Positions 56,118 through 63,998 of a stretch of 64,000 nt of DNA are shown one piece after another. Position numbers and translations under genes: made by a program. The notes under the pieces were generated by a model. The model was not told the origin of the DNA. It ran no database searches and was given only the letters and a program-made list of their open reading frames with translations. The DNA comes from Candidatus Gastranaerophilales bacterium (GTDB lineage: Bacteria > Cyanobacteriota > Vampirovibrionia > Gastranaerophilales > Gastranaerophilaceae), in NCBI GenBank assembly GCA_944323995.1, contig CALUUN010000034.1, positions 1 to 64,000 on the forward strand, given 5' to 3'. How positions within the stretch are numbered: the stretch's first letter is position 1; the number at the start of each line of letters is the position of its first letter.

Positions 56118-56123
56118 TCCGTA

Positions 56124-56459
56124 TTATTTCCAATAAACTTTGAACCTTTTAATTTCCTCAAGAGTTTTATGATAATTCCCTTTAAAACAAATAGTTCTAT
56201 CATCAATGTAAAGATAAGATGCCAGTTTTACATTAGTTACATCTTTAAAAAATTTATCTAAATTATTGTTAATTAACCATTTAGTTGCAAGCATTAAATT
56301 TCTTGATGTAAAAAGATATAGTTCAGCTCTTTGAGATAAAATTTCTAAAAATTCATAAGCCCCGACTTTAATTTCAGGAATATAATTTTCATTAAATTTC
56401 TCTTTTCCGTATTCATTTAGCACACCGTCTAAATCTATAAGTATCTTTTTAGTATACAT
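56124..56459 (-). CDS. HAD-superfamily phosphatase, 5'-nucleotidase-like
   Basis: A 111-residue HAD protein. ILIDLDGVLNEYG carries the DxDG nucleophile motif, LYLFTSRN motif II, and YIDDRTICF motif IV. It lacks a cap domain of normal size, like small 5'(3')-deoxyribonucleotidase relatives. The Met at 56459 is preferred because in-frame codons further upstream belong to the divergent XRE region. It is divergent from the XRE gene at 56527 and shares its control region. Confidence 0.75.
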   Translation of the reverse strand: MYTKKILIDLDGVLNEYGKEKFNENYIPEIKVGAYEFLEILSQRAELYLFTSRNLMLATKWLINNNLDKFFKDVTNVKLASYLYIDDRTICFKGNYHKTLEEIKRFKVYWK

Positions 56460-56472
56460 AAATATTATCCTA

Positions 56473-56509
56473 TTGTTGCTAGTAGTACTAGTTGTATATA
56501 ATGCTAGTA
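56473..56509 (+). promoter_or_regulatory. Promoter with operator palindrome before XRE gene
   Basis: TTGTTG at 56473-56478 and TATAAT at 56497-56502 with an 18-base spacer. The spacer begins with the perfect 13-base palindrome CTAGTA-G-TACTAG (56479-56491). A second CTAGTA half-site lies at 56504-56509, about 25 bases on. The layout is typical of autorepression or controller-protein operators. Confidence 0.6.
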
Positions 56510-56526
56510 TAGCTAACAATTTAAAA

Positions 56527-56742
56527 ATGAACAAGTCTTTTTTAGAAAAATTAGCAAAAAGGTTAAAACATCTGAGAAAAGAAAGAAAATTAACACAAGA
56601 TGATCTTGGAGTAAATGGAGTTTCAAGGTCAATGATCAGCTTACTTGAACTTGCCAGAACAGATATAACAGTTTCTAAATTAAAAATAATCGCAGACAAT
56701 TTAGGAGTTGAAATCAAAGACCTATTTGATTTCAAAGATTAA
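56527..56742 (+). CDS. XRE regulator, controller-type
   Basis: A 71-residue HTH protein (FLEKLAKRLKHLRKERKLTQDD, then SRSMISLLELARTDITVSKL). The size and fold match small C-type controllers. The ATG at 56527 is chosen because codons upstream would cover its own promoter. It sits just before the second defence-like cluster and may control it and the HAD gene. Confidence 0.75.
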   Translation: MNKSFLEKLAKRLKHLRKERKLTQDDLGVNGVSRSMISLLELARTDITVSKLKIIADNLGVEIKDLFDFKD

Positions 56743-57046
56743 TGATACAATGTGCAAACGAGTGCAAAAAATGAGTAGTTGAGTAGACCTTGCTATTATT
56801 GAGTTTTAATGGTGGAGCGAACAGTCCTGTGAGCAACAGGCTCTCATAATAATACTTTTGGAACAATTTTTATTATATTAAAATCGGAAATTCCCTGCTA
56901 AATTAAAAATCATGGAAAAGTCACCGATTTTTGTTCAAGAATTTAAAATCATTGCTGCATAAGGTTTTTAAGACATATTCCCTGCAAGATAAAAAACAGG
57001 GAATATGCAGTAGATTTTTATTGTATAATAGAAACAAAAGGAAGTT
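56743..57046. promoter_or_regulatory. Gap before the defence-like cluster, with an inverted repeat at the promoter
   Basis: No gene is seen in these 304 bases. A short hairpin CCTGT/ACAGG lies near 56833-56847. A perfect 11-base inverted repeat CATATTCCCTG/CAGGGAATATG at 56974-57007 overlaps the place of the -35 box; TATAAT follows at 57024-57029 and AAAAGGAAG precedes the gene. ATTCCCTGC also occurs once more near 56890. A repressor site is likely. Confidence 0.5.
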
Positions 57047-58978
57047 ATGCGCGCATATTATTCAGAAAAAGTTTCAAAATTTTTAAGTACATCAGAGCAT
57101 GAAATTCTTGGTCAATTACTAATGAACCATTGTTTTCCTAATGATTTGGAACAGAAACGTGCTTGGGGTGAGCAAATTCATATTTTAAAACAAAATCTTG
57201 TTGATTTTCCAAATGCAACTTTATTTTTTGAATTTTCAATTCCTAGAATGGGTAAAAGAGTTGATAATATTTTGTTGCTTAATGGAATTATATATTTATT
57301 AGAATTCAAAATATTTGCTAAAAGTTATGAATCTTACGCTATAGACCAGGTTGTTGACTACGCCCTTGATTTAAAGAATTTTCATTCTGGGAGTCATAAT
57401 AAAACAATTGTACCAATTTTGGTTTCAACAATGGCGAAAGAAGCTAAAAATGAAGTGCTATTTGCTGAGGATAAAGTTTCTATTTGTCTTAAAACAAATG
57501 CTAATAACTTAGGAAAATTAATTAAAAATATTGATATAAAATATAGAAAAGAACCTTTCGATGTTCAAGAATGGTTAAATTCTTCGTATAAACCTACACC
57601 AACAATTATTGAAGCAGCACAAGCATTATATGCAAATCATTCTGTTGAAGATATCTCTAGACATGGTGCAGAGGCAATTAATCTTACACTCACAAAAAAT
57701 ACTGTTGAAAAAATTATTAAAGATAGTAAGAATAATAAACAAAAATCAATTTGTTTAATAACTGGGGTGCCAGGGGCTGGAAAAACTTTAGCAGGTTTGG
57801 ATATAGCAACTAGTTCAATGAATTATGACAAGGATGAACAAGCTTGTTTTTTATCAGGTAATGGCCCTTTAGTTAAAGTTTTAAGGGAAGCTTTAATACG
57901 AAATAAATCACAGTTAGGAAATATATCAAAGAAAAAGGTTGAACCACAAGTCTGTGCATTTATTCAAAATATTCATCATTTTAGAGACGAGTATGTAGAA
58001 GACTTGAATCCTCCAATTGAAAAGGTAGTTATTTTCGATGAAGCACAAAGAGCTTGGAATAAAGAGCAAGCCTCAAAATTTATGAATAAGAAAAGTAAAA
58101 TTAAAAATTTTAACTATTCAGAACCAGAATTTTTGCTTGGAGTTATGGATAGGCATCCTGATTGGTGTGTAGTCATATGTTTAATTGGTGAGGGACAGGA
58201 AATCAATACAGGTGAAGCTGGACTAGAAGAATGGTTTAACGCATTGAAAGAAAAATATCCAAATTGGAGAATATACTGTTCACACCATATCGATTATTCA
58301 TCCCATACAAAAGTTTGTACAAAAAATGAACTACACTTAAGTGTTTCGTTACGTTCTTTTAAAAGTGCTAAATTATCCGATTTTATTAATAATTTAATAG
58401 ATAATAAACCGAATGTGGCAAGAAATATTTATAAGGAGTTATCAAAAGAATACCCAATCTTAGTTACAAGAAATTTTGAACAAGCTAAAACTTGGGTAAG
58501 ACAGAATGCTCGCGGTTCTGAGCGTACAGGATTGCTTGCTCATTCCAATGCCATACGTCTAAAGCCATATGGTATATTCGTTAAATCTAAAATTGATTGT
58601 ACTAATTGGTTTTTAAATAGAAGAGAAGATGTCCGTTCCTCATGTGCACTTGAAGATTGTGCAACAGAGTTTGATGTTCAGGGGCTAGAACTTGATTGGA
58701 CTGTTGTTGCTTGGGATGCAAATTTAAGATATAACAAATGCTGGGAATATCTGAAGTTTTCTGGTGATAAATGGAAACACATCAATAATATTGACGACAA
58801 AAAATATCTTTTAAATTCATATAGAGTATTAATGACACGTGCTAGACAGGGGATGGTAATATTTGTGCCTTATGGAGATGAAAGAGACGAAACAAGAACC
58901 CCAAAATTTTATGATGGTATATATAAATATTTACAAGAATGTGGTATTAAAGATTTAGACTATTTAGGAACAGTATAA
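57047..58978 (+). CDS. PD-(D/E)XK nuclease-like plus DUF2075 ATPase/helicase
   Basis: A 643-residue protein. Near residues 73-88, RVDNILLLNG..YLLEFK has the D-x(n)-ExK pattern of a PD-(D/E)XK nuclease. A DUF2075 NTPase follows: Walker A GVPGAGKT at 240-247, Walker B FDEAQRAW at 330-337, and late motifs with DCATEFDVQGLELD and YRVLMTRARQG. The family is known from restriction and phage-defence loci. TATAAT and AAAAGGAAG precede the ATG. The stop overlaps the next start (TAATG), coupling it to the cyclase-like gene. Confidence 0.8.
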   Translation: MRAYYSEKVSKFLSTSEHEILGQLLMNHCFPNDLEQKRAWGEQIHILKQNLVDFPNATLFFEFSIPRMGKRVDNILLLNGIIYLLEFKIFAKSYESYAIDQVVDYALDLKNFHSGSHNKTIVPILVSTMAKEAKNEVLFAEDKVSICLKTNANNLGKLIKNIDIKYRKEPFDVQEWLNSSYKPTPTIIEAAQALYANHSVEDISRHGAEAINLTLTKNTVEKIIKDSKNNKQKSICLITGVPGAGKTLAGLDIATSSMNYDKDEQACFLSGNGPLVKVLREALIRNKSQLGNISKKKVEPQVCAFIQNIHHFRDEYVEDLNPPIEKVVIFDEAQRAWNKEQASKFMNKKSKIKNFNYSEPEFLLGVMDRHPDWCVVICLIGEGQEINTGEAGLEEWFNALKEKYPNWRIYCSHHIDYSSHTKVCTKNELHLSVSLRSFKSAKLSDFINNLIDNKPNVARNIYKELSKEYPILVTRNFEQAKTWVRQNARGSERTGLLAHSNAIRLKPYGIFVKSKIDCTNWFLNRREDVRSSCALEDCATEFDVQGLELDWTVVAWDANLRYNKCWEYLKFSGDKWKHINNIDDKKYLLNSYRVLMTRARQGMVIFVPYGDERDETRTPKFYDGIYKYLQECGIKDLDYLGTV

Positions 58979-59702
58979 TGGTTTATAGAACAGGACAAAT
59001 GCGATATTCCCAAACACAACTTTGTACTTCAAAATATTGTATTGCATATTTAGATATTTTAGGGTCTAAAAATCTTATTGATAATGATAAGAATAATGAA
59101 TTTTTAAATTATTTAAACATGCTTTGTGGTGATGCTTTGTTAGAAGTTAGTTCTAATAAAGATATTTTTATAAAAATTTTTCCGATAATATTTTATTGGC
59201 AGTTAATACGGAATTTGAAGCTCAAATAAGAAAAGAAAGAATAGAAGCATTAATTAATAGAGTAGGAAATATTCAAAATGAAATATTACGTTATGGGTAT
59301 TTGGTACGTGGTGCAATAGTAGAAGGTGACTTTTTTCATAATGATGTGATTGTATATGGAAAAGCCTTAGTTAATGCTGTAAATGATGAAGAACAAATTG
59401 CAATATATACCAGAGTAATAGTTCAGAAGGACATTGTTGAATTATTGCCGCATTATTTTATAATGGATGAAGATAATTTAGGATTTTTAAATCAATTCAT
59501 CTTTAGTCATGCACTAGAATATGTAAACTTTAAGCATCAATTACTGGAGATGCTTAAAAAAAATCCAGATAAAAAGCATAAACAAAAAATAATGTGGATT
59601 ATAAATTATTATAATAATTATTTAAGCTTTAATAAAGCTAAATTACCAGCAAAAACATTTATAACAGAACAAGATATAAATGTCAAAATTGAGGATACTT
59701 AA
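58978..59702 (+). pseudogene. Cyclase-like (palm-fold) protein split by a one-base frameshift
   Basis: Two overlapping frames together give a 241-residue protein. The first carries YCIAYLDILGSKNLI with D26, the second RGAIVEGDFFHNDVIVYGKA. This is the layout of nucleotidyl-cyclase/palm-type enzymes (DILG.K, FSDN, RG.I..G). The frames join if the five-T run at 59177-59181 had one more T, restoring KIFSDNILLAV with the second metal Asp. It could be a true mutation, an assembly error, phase variation or slippage. Translation is coupled to the DUF2075 gene. Similarity to Pycsar-type cyclases is only inferred. Confidence 0.6.
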
Positions 59703-59765
59703 TAATTGTAAATTTTATATTTATAGGTATTATGACGATTGTACAAATTTTTATATAATAAGAAT

Positions 59766-61148
59766 ATGAAAAAAAAATTAGTAAAAGAAATATTAAAGTA
59801 CTATTTAAACAGCCAAAGTTACAAAGGCTATACTCTTCCACAATTATATGAACAATATCAAGATATAAGTGAAATAAAAAATATAATTATTGAATTGATA
59901 AAAGATAATTTTTTGGATTTATATTATTGTACTACTAATCATTTTGTGAAAAATTTTGACTTAAATATTTCTTTAGAACAAAAAATTGATTTTATAAATA
60001 ATTTACCAAACTCTTATAAACCTGAAATTTGGGAAGAAATTAAAATCGATGAAAAAAATAGCATAAAACTTGTTTGTGATAATATTTTACCCCCAATATC
60101 ACTATTTCCCACTTCAAATATTATAAAAGAATATATAAAAAATAAACCAAAATATTACAAATTACCGCCATTTAATAAAATGTTACTGGAAGGAATGCCT
60201 CATTTACATTTTTTATATTTTAGGATTGATGTTTTAAATAGATTTCTTTATGATCCAAGATATGTAGTTTACAATATGGACTTTACAGGTTCAATATATT
60301 ATAAAGTAGATAACTCTGACAATGAAAAGGATGAAAATAATATTTATTTAAGTCATTTTGGGTTAGCATATAATAGTAAAACTAATGAAAATGTTATAAC
60401 TATATTTCCTCATGATTTAGTAAAACTGTCACTTAAGCACCAATACTATTTCTATTCATATTTGTTTGATAATCAAGAAGACTTTGTTCCGGATATATCA
60501 TATTATAAAAACGTAATGGGAGAAATTGCTGATGGAATATCAATTTTTTCCGCATTTTTTGAGGAGATGAAACTAATTAATAAGATGTTTGACATTATTT
60601 GTGGGAAAAAATTATTTAAAAAAATATTTGAATATAGTCAAGAAAATCGTCCTGAATATTTTCATCCATTTATGATGCCAACAAAAACGATGTATCATAA
60701 TTTTTGTAGAACTATATATAGAATATTGGTTGAACAACTTGATAGAGACGCAATAATAGCATTTGCGCAAAAAATAAAAGTCGAGTTGGATAATATAGAA
60801 AAAACGCGTCCAATGACATTATTACAACAGTTATTTAGCAAAGGTTTTAAAACTTTAGATGGTAGTGACATTGGAAAAGAAATTATAAGTATTTGGAAAA
60901 AGGAGTTACATGAATGCCGTAATAAAATATCTCATTCTTTTGTAGATGATATATATGCTACAAATATCTTTGAAAAATACAGAAATACTATTAATGAGGC
61001 ATATAAATCGCTACGTTTAATAAGATTAGTATTATCATCTATTCCTGAAATTAAAGATGCTATAAAAAATGATGAAATAGAAATTTCTGAAGAACTTTAT
61101 CTAGGTAATATAAATATGTATTTTGCACCTTTGAAAAGACTTCAATAA
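59766..61148 (+). CDS. HEPN-motif protein, candidate effector
   Basis: A 460-residue protein of unknown family. The N-terminal 100 residues look like a winged-helix unit (KKLVKEILKYYLNSQ, then SEIKNIIIELIKDNF). The middle is unrecognised. Near the C-terminus RNKISH at residues 385-390 fits the R-x4-H HEPN ribonuclease motif in a helical setting. TATAAT at 59754-59759 ends six bases before ATG 59766: leaderless, so it has its own promoter despite following the cyclase-like gene by 63 bases. A toxin-like RNase triggered by the neighbours is a hypothesis. Confidence 0.6.
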   Translation: MKKKLVKEILKYYLNSQSYKGYTLPQLYEQYQDISEIKNIIIELIKDNFLDLYYCTTNHFVKNFDLNISLEQKIDFINNLPNSYKPEIWEEIKIDEKNSIKLVCDNILPPISLFPTSNIIKEYIKNKPKYYKLPPFNKMLLEGMPHLHFLYFRIDVLNRFLYDPRYVVYNMDFTGSIYYKVDNSDNEKDENNIYLSHFGLAYNSKTNENVITIFPHDLVKLSLKHQYYFYSYLFDNQEDFVPDISYYKNVMGEIADGISIFSAFFEEMKLINKMFDIICGKKLFKKIFEYSQENRPEYFHPFMMPTKTMYHNFCRTIYRILVEQLDRDAIIAFAQKIKVELDNIEKTRPMTLLQQLFSKGFKTLDGSDIGKEIISIWKKELHECRNKISHSFVDDIYATNIFEKYRNTINEAYKSLRLIRLVLSSIPEIKDAIKNDEIEISEELYLGNINMYFAPLKRLQ

Positions 61149-61200
61149 AAAAAGAATTATCATATTTGTTCCATTACTGTCTTTTTAATATTATTAAAAT

Positions 61201-61560
61201 ATGGAGTGTATTTTAAAAGACATTATAAAAATTCAAAAAGCAATAAGGGAAAAATCTCTTGTTATTTTTGTAGGAGCAGGGGTTTCTGCAAATTCCGGAG
61301 TGCCAACTTGGGGAACATTAATAGATAAAATTGCTAAAGAATTAAAAATAGAAAAAGATATTCAACAGAATGAATATTTGAAAATTGCTCAATATTATTA
61401 TAATAATAATCCAAAAACTTTTTTCACTAGTATTAAAAATTTTTTAGATGTAGAACGGCAACTTAATAGTATAAACGAATATTTGTTTAAAGAATTTAAG
61501 CCGAAATATTTCGTTACAACAAACTATGATGATACTCTGGAAAAGATTAATCCTACAGGT
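61201..61560 (+). pseudogene. Truncated SIR2-like gene
   Basis: The first 120 residues of a SIR2_2-type protein: IFVGAGVSANSG at 22-33 (NAD-binding loop) and FVTTNYDDTLEK at 104-115. SIR2 homology stops near 61560, where GC-richer sequence with hairpins begins; the open frame runs on to 61716 but no longer looks like SIR2. Intact SIR2 proteins are NADases of several defence systems. The rest of the gene is not found in the window, so this copy was cut by an insertion or deletion. Confidence 0.75.
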
Positions 61561-61645
61561 ATAGCACATTATACGGTTGAATTATATATCCATCCCCGGT
61601 ACCCAATCGGGATTACGAATATTTCCGAGACTAACCGGACCATTG

Positions 61646-62314
61646 TCAAATTCCATTTGTTTTATAATTTTGCTTTCCTTGATTTGGAAATTTATACAAC
61701 AATCGCATATTTTTAATATCATACTTAGGTAGTTTATAATCAGAGATTTTTTTGCTTATTTTATTTAATTCATTCTGTTTCTGTTCTATATAATTGCCAA
61801 GCTCAACTAATTGTGAATCGTCGACATTATATTTTTTAAAATAAGGATAAAAACATTCTGCCAATGCCCCGCTCCAGTCAGTCGGATAACCACCGAAAGG
61901 TATAAGAAGATACTTATCAGTAATATGCAAAATATCAGCATATACAATAAATTCCAAGCTTTCAAGAACTCTTTCATAATCATTTAACTTCTCTCCATAA
62001 TCCTGCAAAGATAATTTTTTAGAAGGGTTTTTCAGAAAGTCTTCATAAAGCCTGTCGGCTTTCTTTATGATTTCATCCATCTCATTTTTTGTTTTGGGAA
62101 CTTCTGCCGCCAGATAAGTTTCTACTTCAGATTTATAGTGTTTAGTGAAGAACATGCAATTATGTTTTTTCGCATATTCTTGCAAATTAGTTATTTGATA
62201 ATACAAGAACTGCATATGACCGCTCATAACAATATGCGGAAGCTGTCTTAAAAATACAAAGCTGCCGAAAAATAAAAATACTAAAATTGATATAATTATT
62301 AATTTGTTTTTCAT
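61646..62314 (-). CDS. Membrane-anchored hypothetical protein inside the SIR2 insertion
   Basis: A 222-residue protein with an N-terminal anchor (residues 5-22, LIIISILVFLFFGSFVFL), then a helical periplasmic-type domain with conserved-looking LLIPFGGYPTDWSGALAECF. ACAGGAAT precedes the ATG. It lies directly downstream, on the same strand, of the multi-hairpin RNA candidate, which may be its leader or its neighbour. Base use resembles core genes more than the AT-rich genes around it. Family unknown. Confidence 0.6.
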   Translation of the reverse strand: MKNKLIIISILVFLFFGSFVFLRQLPHIVMSGHMQFLYYQITNLQEYAKKHNCMFFTKHYKSEVETYLAAEVPKTKNEMDEIIKKADRLYEDFLKNPSKKLSLQDYGEKLNDYERVLESLEFIVYADILHITDKYLLIPFGGYPTDWSGALAECFYPYFKKYNVDDSQLVELGNYIEQKQNELNKISKKISDYKLPKYDIKNMRLLYKFPNQGKQNYKTNGI

Positions 62315-62771: not shown

Positions 62772-63326
62772 TTAGTATAAGTAATCTGAAATCTTATCCA
62801 TATACATTTTTGCTTTTTTTATATTAAAAGTTTGAGCATATACTTCTTTAAGATTATAGTTATTTACAAATGGGGACAAAATTTTATAAAATTCTTTTAA
62901 AAATATTTTTTTGTCAATTAAAATATCACATTCTATTTTGTATAAATTTAAATCATAATCATCTATAATATTATTTGCAAATGATGCATATAACTCATAA
63001 TCATGTGCAAAAATAAATCTTATATTCTTTTCGTCTATGCTCTTGACATATAATAAAGGTAAACTACCCTCATTGTCAGGGAAAAAAGCAATATCATCCT
63101 TTAAATTTATAATTTCTGCTAAAAATTGAATTAAATCAAAAGTATCTGTCATTACTGTGCTGTATTGAATATAAAATTTCTTTTTATCTTTTTCTAAATC
63201 AATATAAACCCAACCATTTTGCTCTTTGATTGTTAAAACAGAGAAGTTGCTATATTGGTTTGGTTTTGATTGATTAACAAAATCTATAATTTCATTTTCA
63301 GTATTTATATCGCCTATTATTATCAT
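62772..63326 (-). CDS. Hypothetical protein, paralog of its neighbour (immunity-like)
   Basis: A 184-residue acidic soluble protein. Its middle (LIQFLAEIINLKDDIAFFPDNEGSLPLLYVK pattern) and the following FIFAHDYELYASFANN and DILIDKKIFLKEFYK segments align by eye with the gene at 63408-63998. Paired small acidic paralogs of this kind often are immunity proteins for polymorphic toxins, but no toxin is in view. GAGGAAT precedes the ATG. Confidence 0.6.
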   Translation of the reverse strand: MIIIGDINTENEIIDFVNQSKPNQYSNFSVLTIKEQNGWVYIDLEKDKKKFYIQYSTVMTDTFDLIQFLAEIINLKDDIAFFPDNEGSLPLLYVKSIDEKNIRFIFAHDYELYASFANNIIDDYDLNLYKIECDILIDKKIFLKEFYKILSPFVNNYNLKEVYAQTFNIKKAKMYMDKISDYLY

Positions 63327-63407
63327 TCAAATTCCTCCTGATATTTTTCTTTTATCAATTTACAGATTTCAATGAGGTGATTGAGATTACAGAGATATAT
63401 AAAAATT

Positions 63408-63998
63408 TTAAAGATATTGCTCTATTATAGGAGAACCTTTTTGTAATTCGATAAATTGGTTTAACATCCAATTGCAAGTATATTGTTTCGTGTCAGTATT
63501 TTTTATAACATTTTTAATTGTCGAATAGAATGTTCTTATAAAATTTTTTTTGTCTGTAATTATATCTTGTCGTATTTTATATGCTTCTGTTTCTATATAT
63601 TTCGAAAATTGCTTTCTTTGTGATAAATGTATAAATCTAATTTTGTCATTTATTTTTTTTACAAATAGAAATGTATCAGGACCTTCTTCTTCACAATAAA
63701 AATATATCTCATCTTCTTTTGAAATTATAATTGCTTCTAAAAATCTTAACAAATGTGCCGGAGTATTAACTGCTTCAGCAAGCCAGAATATACTTTTTCC
63801 ATAATCAGTTTCAAATAAAAATTCTAAATCAACATAATACGCATTTGCTATGGTTATGTTGAGTTTGTTCGTTTCAATCGGGATTGAAGTTTCTATTAAT
63901 TGTTCAAATGTAATTTTTTCATTTTTGCTATATTCATTCCAGGTTTGTTTGGAAAAATCTTGAACAATTTGCCATATAGGTGTTTCCTTTAAATTCAT
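63408..63998 (-). CDS. Hypothetical protein, paralog of its neighbour (immunity-like)
   Basis: A 196-residue protein aligned with the preceding gene by HLLRFLEAIIISKEDEIYFY, LFVKKINDKIRFIHLSQRKQFSKY and DIITDKKNFIRTFYS segments. It has an extra 55-residue N-terminal part. The start at 63998 is two bases from the window end; an upstream start outside the window cannot be excluded. Same strand and 81 bases from its paralog, so they may be co-transcribed. Function unknown. Confidence 0.55.
   Translation of the reverse strand: MNLKETPIWQIVQDFSKQTWNEYSKNEKITFEQLIETSIPIETNKLNITIANAYYVDLEFLFETDYGKSIFWLAEAVNTPAHLLRFLEAIIISKEDEIYFYCEEEGPDTFLFVKKINDKIRFIHLSQRKQFSKYIETEAYKIRQDIITDKKNFIRTFYSTIKNVIKNTDTKQYTCNWMLNQFIELQKGSPIIEQYL

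What the first reader, a model, noticed from the sequence alone, without database searches (positions are those of the whole stretch)
57047..61148. Nuclease/DUF2075 ATPase + cyclase-like + HEPN protein: possible new signalling defence system
A PD-(D/E)XK plus DUF2075 NTPase is translationally coupled (TAATG) to a palm/cyclase-like protein, followed by a protein with an R-x4-H HEPN motif. Next to it lie a SIR2 remnant and an XRE controller. Sensor, messenger enzyme and RNase effector is a logical set, but the combination matches no system I can name (not CBASS, Pycsar or Thoeris as known).
Basis: inference. Interest (0 to 1): 0.75.

Follow-up and report, generated by a model that had tools for sequence, protein, structure and literature searches.

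The report
Defence cluster with orphan cyclase-like protein
A gut bacterium carries a row of four anti-virus genes that mostly occur separately in other genomes, so they are probably not one new system, but the second gene (broken here) belongs to an undescribed family of cyclase-like proteins often built into the restriction operons of other microbes.

Summary
The genes are real but do not form one new signalling system. p1 (57047-58978) is PADLOC candidate PDC-S41: a PD-(D/E)XK nuclease joined to a Schlafen-type helicase. p3 carries a conserved HEPN motif. SIR2 is a remnant. An intact p1-p2-p3-SIR2 block (95% DNA identity) lies in another Gastranaerophilales genome. Elsewhere p1, p3 and SIR2 nearly always occur without the others; p2 adjoins p1 in one further, distant genome. 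The lasting result is p2. Its AlphaFold model (pLDDT 92) matches class III adenylyl/guanylyl cyclases, and both metal-binding Asp are present in all 86 members read. The family has no Pfam, PADLOC or NCBIfam model. In 25 of 80 loci from a genome scan (0 of 38 control regions) it lies beside type I restriction-modification genes; in 12 loci read it sits between hsdM and hsdS, as one to three tandem copies. Other members adjoin Shedu, AbiH, AbiEii, Dsr1, TIR or PDC-S41 genes. It was recruited into type I operons repeatedly. Cyclase activity is unproven: the canonical Asn/Arg pair is missing and no effector recurs.

The parts
56804..61544 (+). Block shared with genome G102 (other genus of the same family), 95.1% DNA identity: the mobile cassette p1-p2-p3-SIR2(5' part)
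   Evidence: blastn of the window against L008
57047..58978 (+). p1: PD-(D/E)XK nuclease + Schlafen group 3 (DUF2075) helicase, 643 aa; PADLOC PDC-S41
   Evidence: PDLC05014 E=5.3e-281 full length; PF09848 E=1e-80
57263..57361 (+). p1 nuclease motif D73...E86-x-K88...Q101-x3-Y105
   Evidence: invariant in 12 relatives
57764..57787 (+). p1 Walker A (GVPGAGKT, residues 240-247)
   Evidence: alignment of 12 relatives
58978..59702 (+). p2: class III cyclase-like protein, pseudogene here (frameshift near 59181); intact 241-aa copy in G102
   Evidence: ORFs; comparison with G102; fold of the intact relative
59053..59055 (+). p2 codon of first metal-binding Asp (D26)
   Evidence: invariant in 64 aligned and 86 checked relatives
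59184..59186 (+). p2 codon of second metal-binding Asp (D70), just after the frameshift
   Evidence: invariant in 64 aligned and 86 checked relatives
59766..61148 (+). p3: HEPN-like protein, 460 aa from ATG 59766 (469 aa from TTG 59739)
   Evidence: ORF; the start agrees with the relative L009; weak HEPN Pfam matches in relatives
60918..60935 (+). p3 R-x4-H motif (RNKISH, residues 394-399)
   Evidence: kept in relatives of 22-70% identity; truncated in L006
61201..61716 (+). SIR2 remnant; homology to the intact 1006-aa protein of G102 ends at 61544

Best explanation
The locus is a small defence island of units that are largely separate elsewhere, shared as one 4.7-kb block between two genera of gut Gastranaerophilales. 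p1 is a single-protein defence candidate (PDC-S41): a helicase that probably recognises foreign or abnormal nucleic acid and licenses its own PD-(D/E)XK nuclease. p3 is a HEPN RNase-type effector found alone elsewhere. SIR2 is a dead remnant of an NADase-type protein. p2 is a decayed copy of an undescribed class III cyclase-like family that travels as an accessory of other defence genes, most often inside type I restriction-modification operons. Its most likely role is a nucleotide-binding or nucleotide-cyclising accessory that responds when its partner defence enzyme is engaged or blocked, as PrrC does for its type I enzyme. Shown: the p2 fold (predicted, high confidence), its invariant Asp pair, its genomic contexts, and the separate occurrence of p1, p3 and SIR2. 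Inferred: every biochemical activity and the coupling of p2 to its partner.
For: p1 full-length PDC-S41, with p2 nearby in only two lineages among 16 loci read. p3 without p1/p2 in four genomes. SIR2 relatives apart from p1-p3. p2 model pLDDT 92.4; the 50 best PDB matches listed are class III cyclases. D26, D70, R111 in all 86 p2 proteins. Type I hsd genes within 3 kb in 25 of 80 p2 loci, same-strand adjacent in 19, against 0 of 38 control regions; hsdM-p2-hsdS in 12 loci. The type I context needs at least 18 changes on the p2 tree. Other defence neighbours.
Against: In G102 the four genes are co-directional with short gaps, so they may be co-transcribed and could still cooperate. p1 and p2 are near each other in a second, distant lineage (L138). 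Many p2 loci in Clostridia have no defence neighbour that I recognise. The control regions come only from the Gastranaerophilales family. The p3 fold is unresolved.
Confidence: 0.7

Rival explanations
1. One reading: p1 senses phage, p2 makes a cyclic nucleotide, and p3 (HEPN) and SIR2 are effectors that it switches on; one multi-gene signalling defence system.
For: Same order and strand with short gaps in G102, 95% identical and so moved as one block. p2 has a class III cyclase fold with both metal ligands. p1 and p2 are near each other in L138 as well.
Against: p1, p3 and SIR2 mostly occur without each other. p3 and p2 are together nowhere else seen. p2 partners many unrelated defence genes. 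In the window p2 and SIR2 are broken while p1 and p3 are intact.
Confidence: 0.12
2. p2 is an active class III cyclase, a Pycsar-like messenger enzyme whose effector is a changing neighbour (TIR, HEPN, SIR2) or lies elsewhere in the genome.
For: Invariant D26/D70/R111 and mostly conserved K66; class III fold; a TIR gene between p2 and hsdS in L136 and a TIR-like gene after p2 in L119.
Against: Canonical Asn/Arg positions not conserved; only 1 of 64 members matches PycC, weakly (E=0.0023); no Pfam family matches more than 3 of 90 non-Hsd neighbours.
Confidence: 0.35
3. p2 is a catalytically silent nucleotide-binding regulator (class III fold reused) that tunes or chaperones its partner defence enzyme, for instance type I restriction.
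For: Tight, often overlapping placement next to type I genes; no recurrent effector; canonical Asn/Arg pair missing.
Against: Both metal-binding Asp and R111 are kept in all 86 proteins, tandem copies included, which is unusual for a dead enzyme.
Confidence: 0.3
4. p2 is merely a passenger of defence islands or phage-derived cargo (for example counter-defence) with no working link to its neighbours.
For: Many p2 loci in Clostridia lack a recognised defence neighbour; distant relatives in three viral contigs and two PHROG families.
Against: One to three p2 genes between hsdM and hsdS on the same strand, with overlapping ends, in bacteria of several phyla and an archaeon; a passenger would rarely keep the operon readable.
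Confidence: 0.2

Closest known systems
PDC-S41 (PADLOC phage-defence candidate, single gene)
   Same: p1 matches the model end to end (E=5.3e-281), same two domains
   Different: Nothing notable; in the window and in L138 a p2 gene lies nearby
Nhi / AbiO nuclease-helicase defence proteins
   Same: Helicase segment of p1 resembles both (E=3.9e-5 and 1e-6); nuclease plus helicase in one chain works alike
   Different: Only the ATPase part (residues 219-352) matches; no full-length membership
Class III nucleotidyl cyclases (CyaB, Ma1120, CyaC)
   Same: p2 model has their fold, both metal Asp, mostly the Lys four residues before the second Asp
   Different: Asn/Arg positions not conserved; 10-19% identity over the listed structural matches; no Pfam match; context in defence operons
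Pycsar cyclase PycC
   Same: Class III-type fold, Asp pair 44 residues apart, defence setting
   Different: 1 of 64 members matches the PycC model, weakly; no fixed PycTIR/PycTM effector
PrrC-type proteins embedded in type I R-M operons (own knowledge)
   Same: A non-hsd gene inside the hsd operon, as p2 is in 12 loci
   Different: p2 has a cyclase fold, not an anticodon nuclease; guard function untested; the window copy is not in an hsd operon
HEPN_MAE_28990 family (PF18737; PMC3710099)
   Same: C-terminal region of two p3 family members matches weakly (best E=0.0017); R-x4-H motif
   Different: Below the Pfam cut-off; the first 300 residues of p3 have no Pfam match

Membership tests
PDC-S41 (p1) | Full-length match to PDLC05014 | tested here: met
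   E=5.3e-281, residues 1-638 on profile 1-654 of 657
PDC-S41 (p1) | Acts as a single-gene defence | not testable with these tools
   Mostly solitary in 16 loci read, activity unknown
Nhi / AbiO (p1) | Match beyond the ATPase segment | tested here: not met
   Only residues 219-352 match
Class III nucleotidyl cyclase (p2) | Class III fold | tested here: met
   AF2 pLDDT 92.4, Foldseek best E=3.6e-6, prob 1.0
Class III nucleotidyl cyclase (p2) | Two metal-binding Asp | tested here: met
   D26 and D70 in 86 of 86
Class III nucleotidyl cyclase (p2) | Asn/Arg pair that supports the transition state | tested here: not met
   Equivalent positions 132 and 136, placed by eye from the motif, are V/L/I and variable
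Class III nucleotidyl cyclase (p2) | Makes a cyclic nucleotide | not testable with these tools
   No assay
Pycsar (p2 as PycC) | Matches the PycC models | tested here: not met
   No match for the G102 p2; 1 of 64 relatives at E=0.0023
Pycsar | Adjacent PycTIR or PycTM effector | tested here: not met
   No recurrent effector; window and G102 have HEPN and SIR2; L119 has a TIR-like gene (E=0.0011)
CBASS | CD-NTase with cap effector | tested here: not met
   No CD-NTase model among the PADLOC matches of p1-p3 and SIR2
Thoeris | ThsA SIR2 plus ThsB TIR | tested here: not met
   Only the SIR2 domain resembles ThsA; no TIR gene among p1-p3
HEPN (p3) | R-x4-H motif conserved in relatives | tested here: met
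   Kept in five of six, the sixth truncated
HEPN (p3) | HEPN fold or a Pfam match above cut-off | tested here: inconclusive
   AF2 pLDDT 35; Pfam E=0.0017 at best, below cut-off
Type I R-M accessory (p2 family) | Same-strand placement inside hsd operons in several lineages | tested here: met
   19 of 80 loci adjacent on the same strand, 12 hsdM-p2-hsdS loci in bacteria and an archaeon. Not met for the window copy itself

The most novel reading that the evidence does not exclude
p2 is the founding family of a restriction-embedded messenger enzyme: a class III-like cyclase held silent by its type I R-M complex (or other partner) that makes a nucleotide signal when phage blocks or engages the partner, so that restriction and abortive infection are wired together.
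Probability: 0.2. Interest if true: 0.85.

Novelty: new variant of a known kind. Interest (0 to 1): 0.5.

Why it matters
A widespread, unmodelled cyclase-like family that sits inside type I restriction operons and beside Shedu, AbiH, AbiEii, Dsr1 and PDC-S41 genes would link restriction to nucleotide signalling, two arms of bacterial immunity usually treated as separate. It gives a compact set of genes to test and a profile that defence-finding tools lack. The window itself matters less: its p2 and SIR2 are broken.

Tried and rejected
One multi-gene system: rejected because p1, p3 and SIR2 mostly occur apart. XRE gene as controller: rejected, it lies outside the shared block. p2 as a plain Pycsar cyclase: no model match for the intact relative, no fixed effector. 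p3 structure: two near-identical sequences gave a useless model. Viral contigs: no p1 or p3 relatives, none for p2 with a single query, three distant ones with an alignment. Phages: no p2 or p3 match by tblastn, one p1 match in an unverified faecal contig. Papers: none found that describe p2-like proteins in type I operons, or PDC-S41 by name; most subscription papers are not in the library. Literature on Nhi was listed but not read.
Full report
THE OBSERVATION. The window is contig C34 of a 1.75-Mb genome, a Gastranaerophilales relative judging from its nearest matches. The ORFs are as described with one important exception. p1 (57047-58978, 643 aa) is intact. p2 is not: the cyclase-like reading is split into 58978-59229 and 59196-59702. 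Comparison with a 95% identical block in another genome of the family (G102 = CALVBD010000003.1, L008/L074) shows loss of one T in a T-run near 59181. A real mutation cannot be told from an assembly error without reads. p3 (ORF 59739-61148, likely start ATG 59766) and a truncated SIR2 (61201-61716) follow. In G102 the order p1 (639 aa), p2 (241 aa), p3 (469 aa), SIR2 (1006 aa) is intact. The shared block runs from 56804 to 61544 and excludes the XRE gene. The TAATG overlap of p1 and p2 is not conserved: G102 has a 10-nt gap.

P1. Full-length match to PADLOC PDC-S41 (E=5.3e-281) and Pfam SLFN-g3 helicase (E=1e-80). D73, E86-x-K88 and Q101-x3-Y105 are invariant in 12 relatives, as are the Walker motifs, so a PD-(D/E)XK nuclease joined to a helicase is well supported by sequence. 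I read 16 p1 loci: the window, G102, L138, a Persicobacter plasmid gene (L011), L012, L013, L031-L035 and L210-L214. A p2 relative is nearby only in the window/G102 block and in L138 (Bacilli), where a PDC-S22 (KilA-N) gene lies between. Some contigs end close to p1 (L033, L211, L012), so a few neighbours may be missed. p1 is therefore mainly a stand-alone gene.

P3. The R-x4-H motif (RNKISH) is kept as RNRISH and RQKPAH in relatives of 22-70% identity; the Tenacibaculum copy is truncated there. Two members match a HEPN Pfam model weakly (E=0.0017 at best). The structure job had only two near-identical sequences and failed (pLDDT 35). p3 stands without p1 or p2 in L009 (same host family) and in Agrobacterium, Tenacibaculum and Mycobacterium plasmids. 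HEPN is likely by motif; the fold is unproven.

SIR2. The window piece keeps 125 aligned residues of the 1006-aa G102 protein and lacks the rest of the catalytic domain. Relatives occur in G106, G126, G182 and G288; in the three of these that also hold p2 (G106, G182, G288) p2 is on other contigs.

P2, THE INTERESTING PART. The intact G102 p2 matches no model in Pfam (above cut-off), PADLOC or NCBIfam. Over 64 relatives only stray single matches appear, one of them PycC at E=0.0023. Phage families phrog_23933 and phrog_21097, both of unknown function, do match. AlphaFold2 on a 64-sequence alignment gave pLDDT 92.4 and pTM 0.89. The 50 best PDB matches listed by Foldseek are class III adenylyl or guanylyl cyclases, from E=3.6e-6, target TM up to 0.69. 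D26, D70 and R111 are present in all 86 p2 proteins checked, tandem copies included; K66, four residues before D70 and the place of the base-selecting Lys of adenylyl cyclases (own knowledge), is Lys in 56 of 64. Part of this conservation follows from the search patterns, which contain these motifs, but each hit needed only one pattern, and the plasmid relatives found by tblastn keep D26, D70 and R111 too. The positions of the canonical Asn and Arg (132, 136; placed by eye from the motif) are not conserved. The spacing of 44 residues between the Asp equals that in PycC proteins (D62/D106, D102/D146; PMC11224242) and is general for class III (own knowledge).

CONTEXT OF P2. One genome scan returned 80 loci in Gastranaerophilales, Elusimicrobia, Clostridia, Bacilli, Lentisphaerae, Chloroflexi, Proteobacteria, Acidobacteria and a Methanocorpusculaceae archaeon. 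A type I hsd gene lies within 3 kb in 25 of 80 and is the same-strand neighbour in 19, often with overlapping ends; none of 38 control regions of the same host family (12.7 kb each) holds one. The control covers only the Gastranaerophilales part. The order hsdM - p2 - hsdS, sometimes with another gene between, is seen in L100, L102, L104, L106, L114, L115, L118, L135, L136, L142, L143 and L219, with two or three tandem p2 in L100, L102, L106, L114 and L142. Representative HsdM, HsdS and HsdR were confirmed; the rest were labelled by similarity to seeds chosen from these loci. Outside type I operons p2 adjoins AbiH (L101), Shedu (L120) and a TIR-like gene (L119), and AbiEii (L015) and Dsr1 (L016) on plasmids; Fic, RhuM and BrxL genes occur among the neighbours. 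Of 90 non-Hsd neighbours no Pfam family matches more than three: there is no standing effector. On a tree of 81 p2 proteins the type I context needs at least 18 changes, 12 forced by well-supported branches, so p2 has entered or left such operons many times. Searched by profile, p2 occurs in 18 of 292 genomes of the window's phylum and in 9 of 245 genomes of the class of L111, a Clostridiaceae bacterium; many of the latter have no defence neighbour that I recognise.

INTERPRETATION. The window is a small island of units that are largely separate elsewhere. That p1 cuts nucleic acid after recognition by its helicase, and that p3 cuts RNA, is inferred from the families. For p2 a nucleotide-binding or nucleotide-cyclising accessory seems most likely. 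The kept Asp ligands argue for catalysis; the missing Asn/Arg and the lack of an effector argue for a regulator. Placement inside hsd operons recalls PrrC (own knowledge), hence the guard model. No step of this coupling has been shown. The confidences given to the rival readings of p2 are for p2 alone and do not exclude the best explanation, which leaves its chemistry open.

VERDICT. The parts are right, the system is not, and a better finding lies beneath: an undescribed, mobile, class III cyclase-like family tied to type I restriction. Novelty: new variant of a known kind. Interest 0.5, because the family is real and testable but its activity and role are unknown and the window copy is broken.

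Noticed in passing
window 56122-56741: A HAD-like phosphatase gene (minus strand) and an XRE regulator; the same stretch (80-84% DNA identity) lies in L096, which also carries a p2 gene about 1.3 kb further on.
   Followed up: partly
L154, L155, L156 (viral contigs): Distant p2 relatives in virus-like contigs; p2 also matches phage families of unknown function (phrog_23933, phrog_21097), so phages or prophages may carry this family.
   Followed up: partly
L008:2503-5523 (minus strand): The intact 1006-aa SIR2 protein has a ThsA/Dsr-like SIR2 domain and a long C-terminal part without a Pfam or PADLOC match; relatives in four more Gastranaerophilales genomes, three of them seemingly broken or split.
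   Followed up: partly
L100:3174-5494, L114:4466-7620, L142:5923-8170: Two or three tandem, diverged p2 copies between hsdM and hsdS, all with both metal-binding Asp; this would fit heterodimeric cyclases.
   Followed up: partly
L136:2403-3245: A TIR-domain gene between p2 and hsdS inside a type I operon of a Cyanobacteria-class genome (UBA3803): a candidate effector for p2.
   Followed up: no
window 62772-63998: Two related small genes of unknown function on the minus strand downstream of the island.
   Followed up: no
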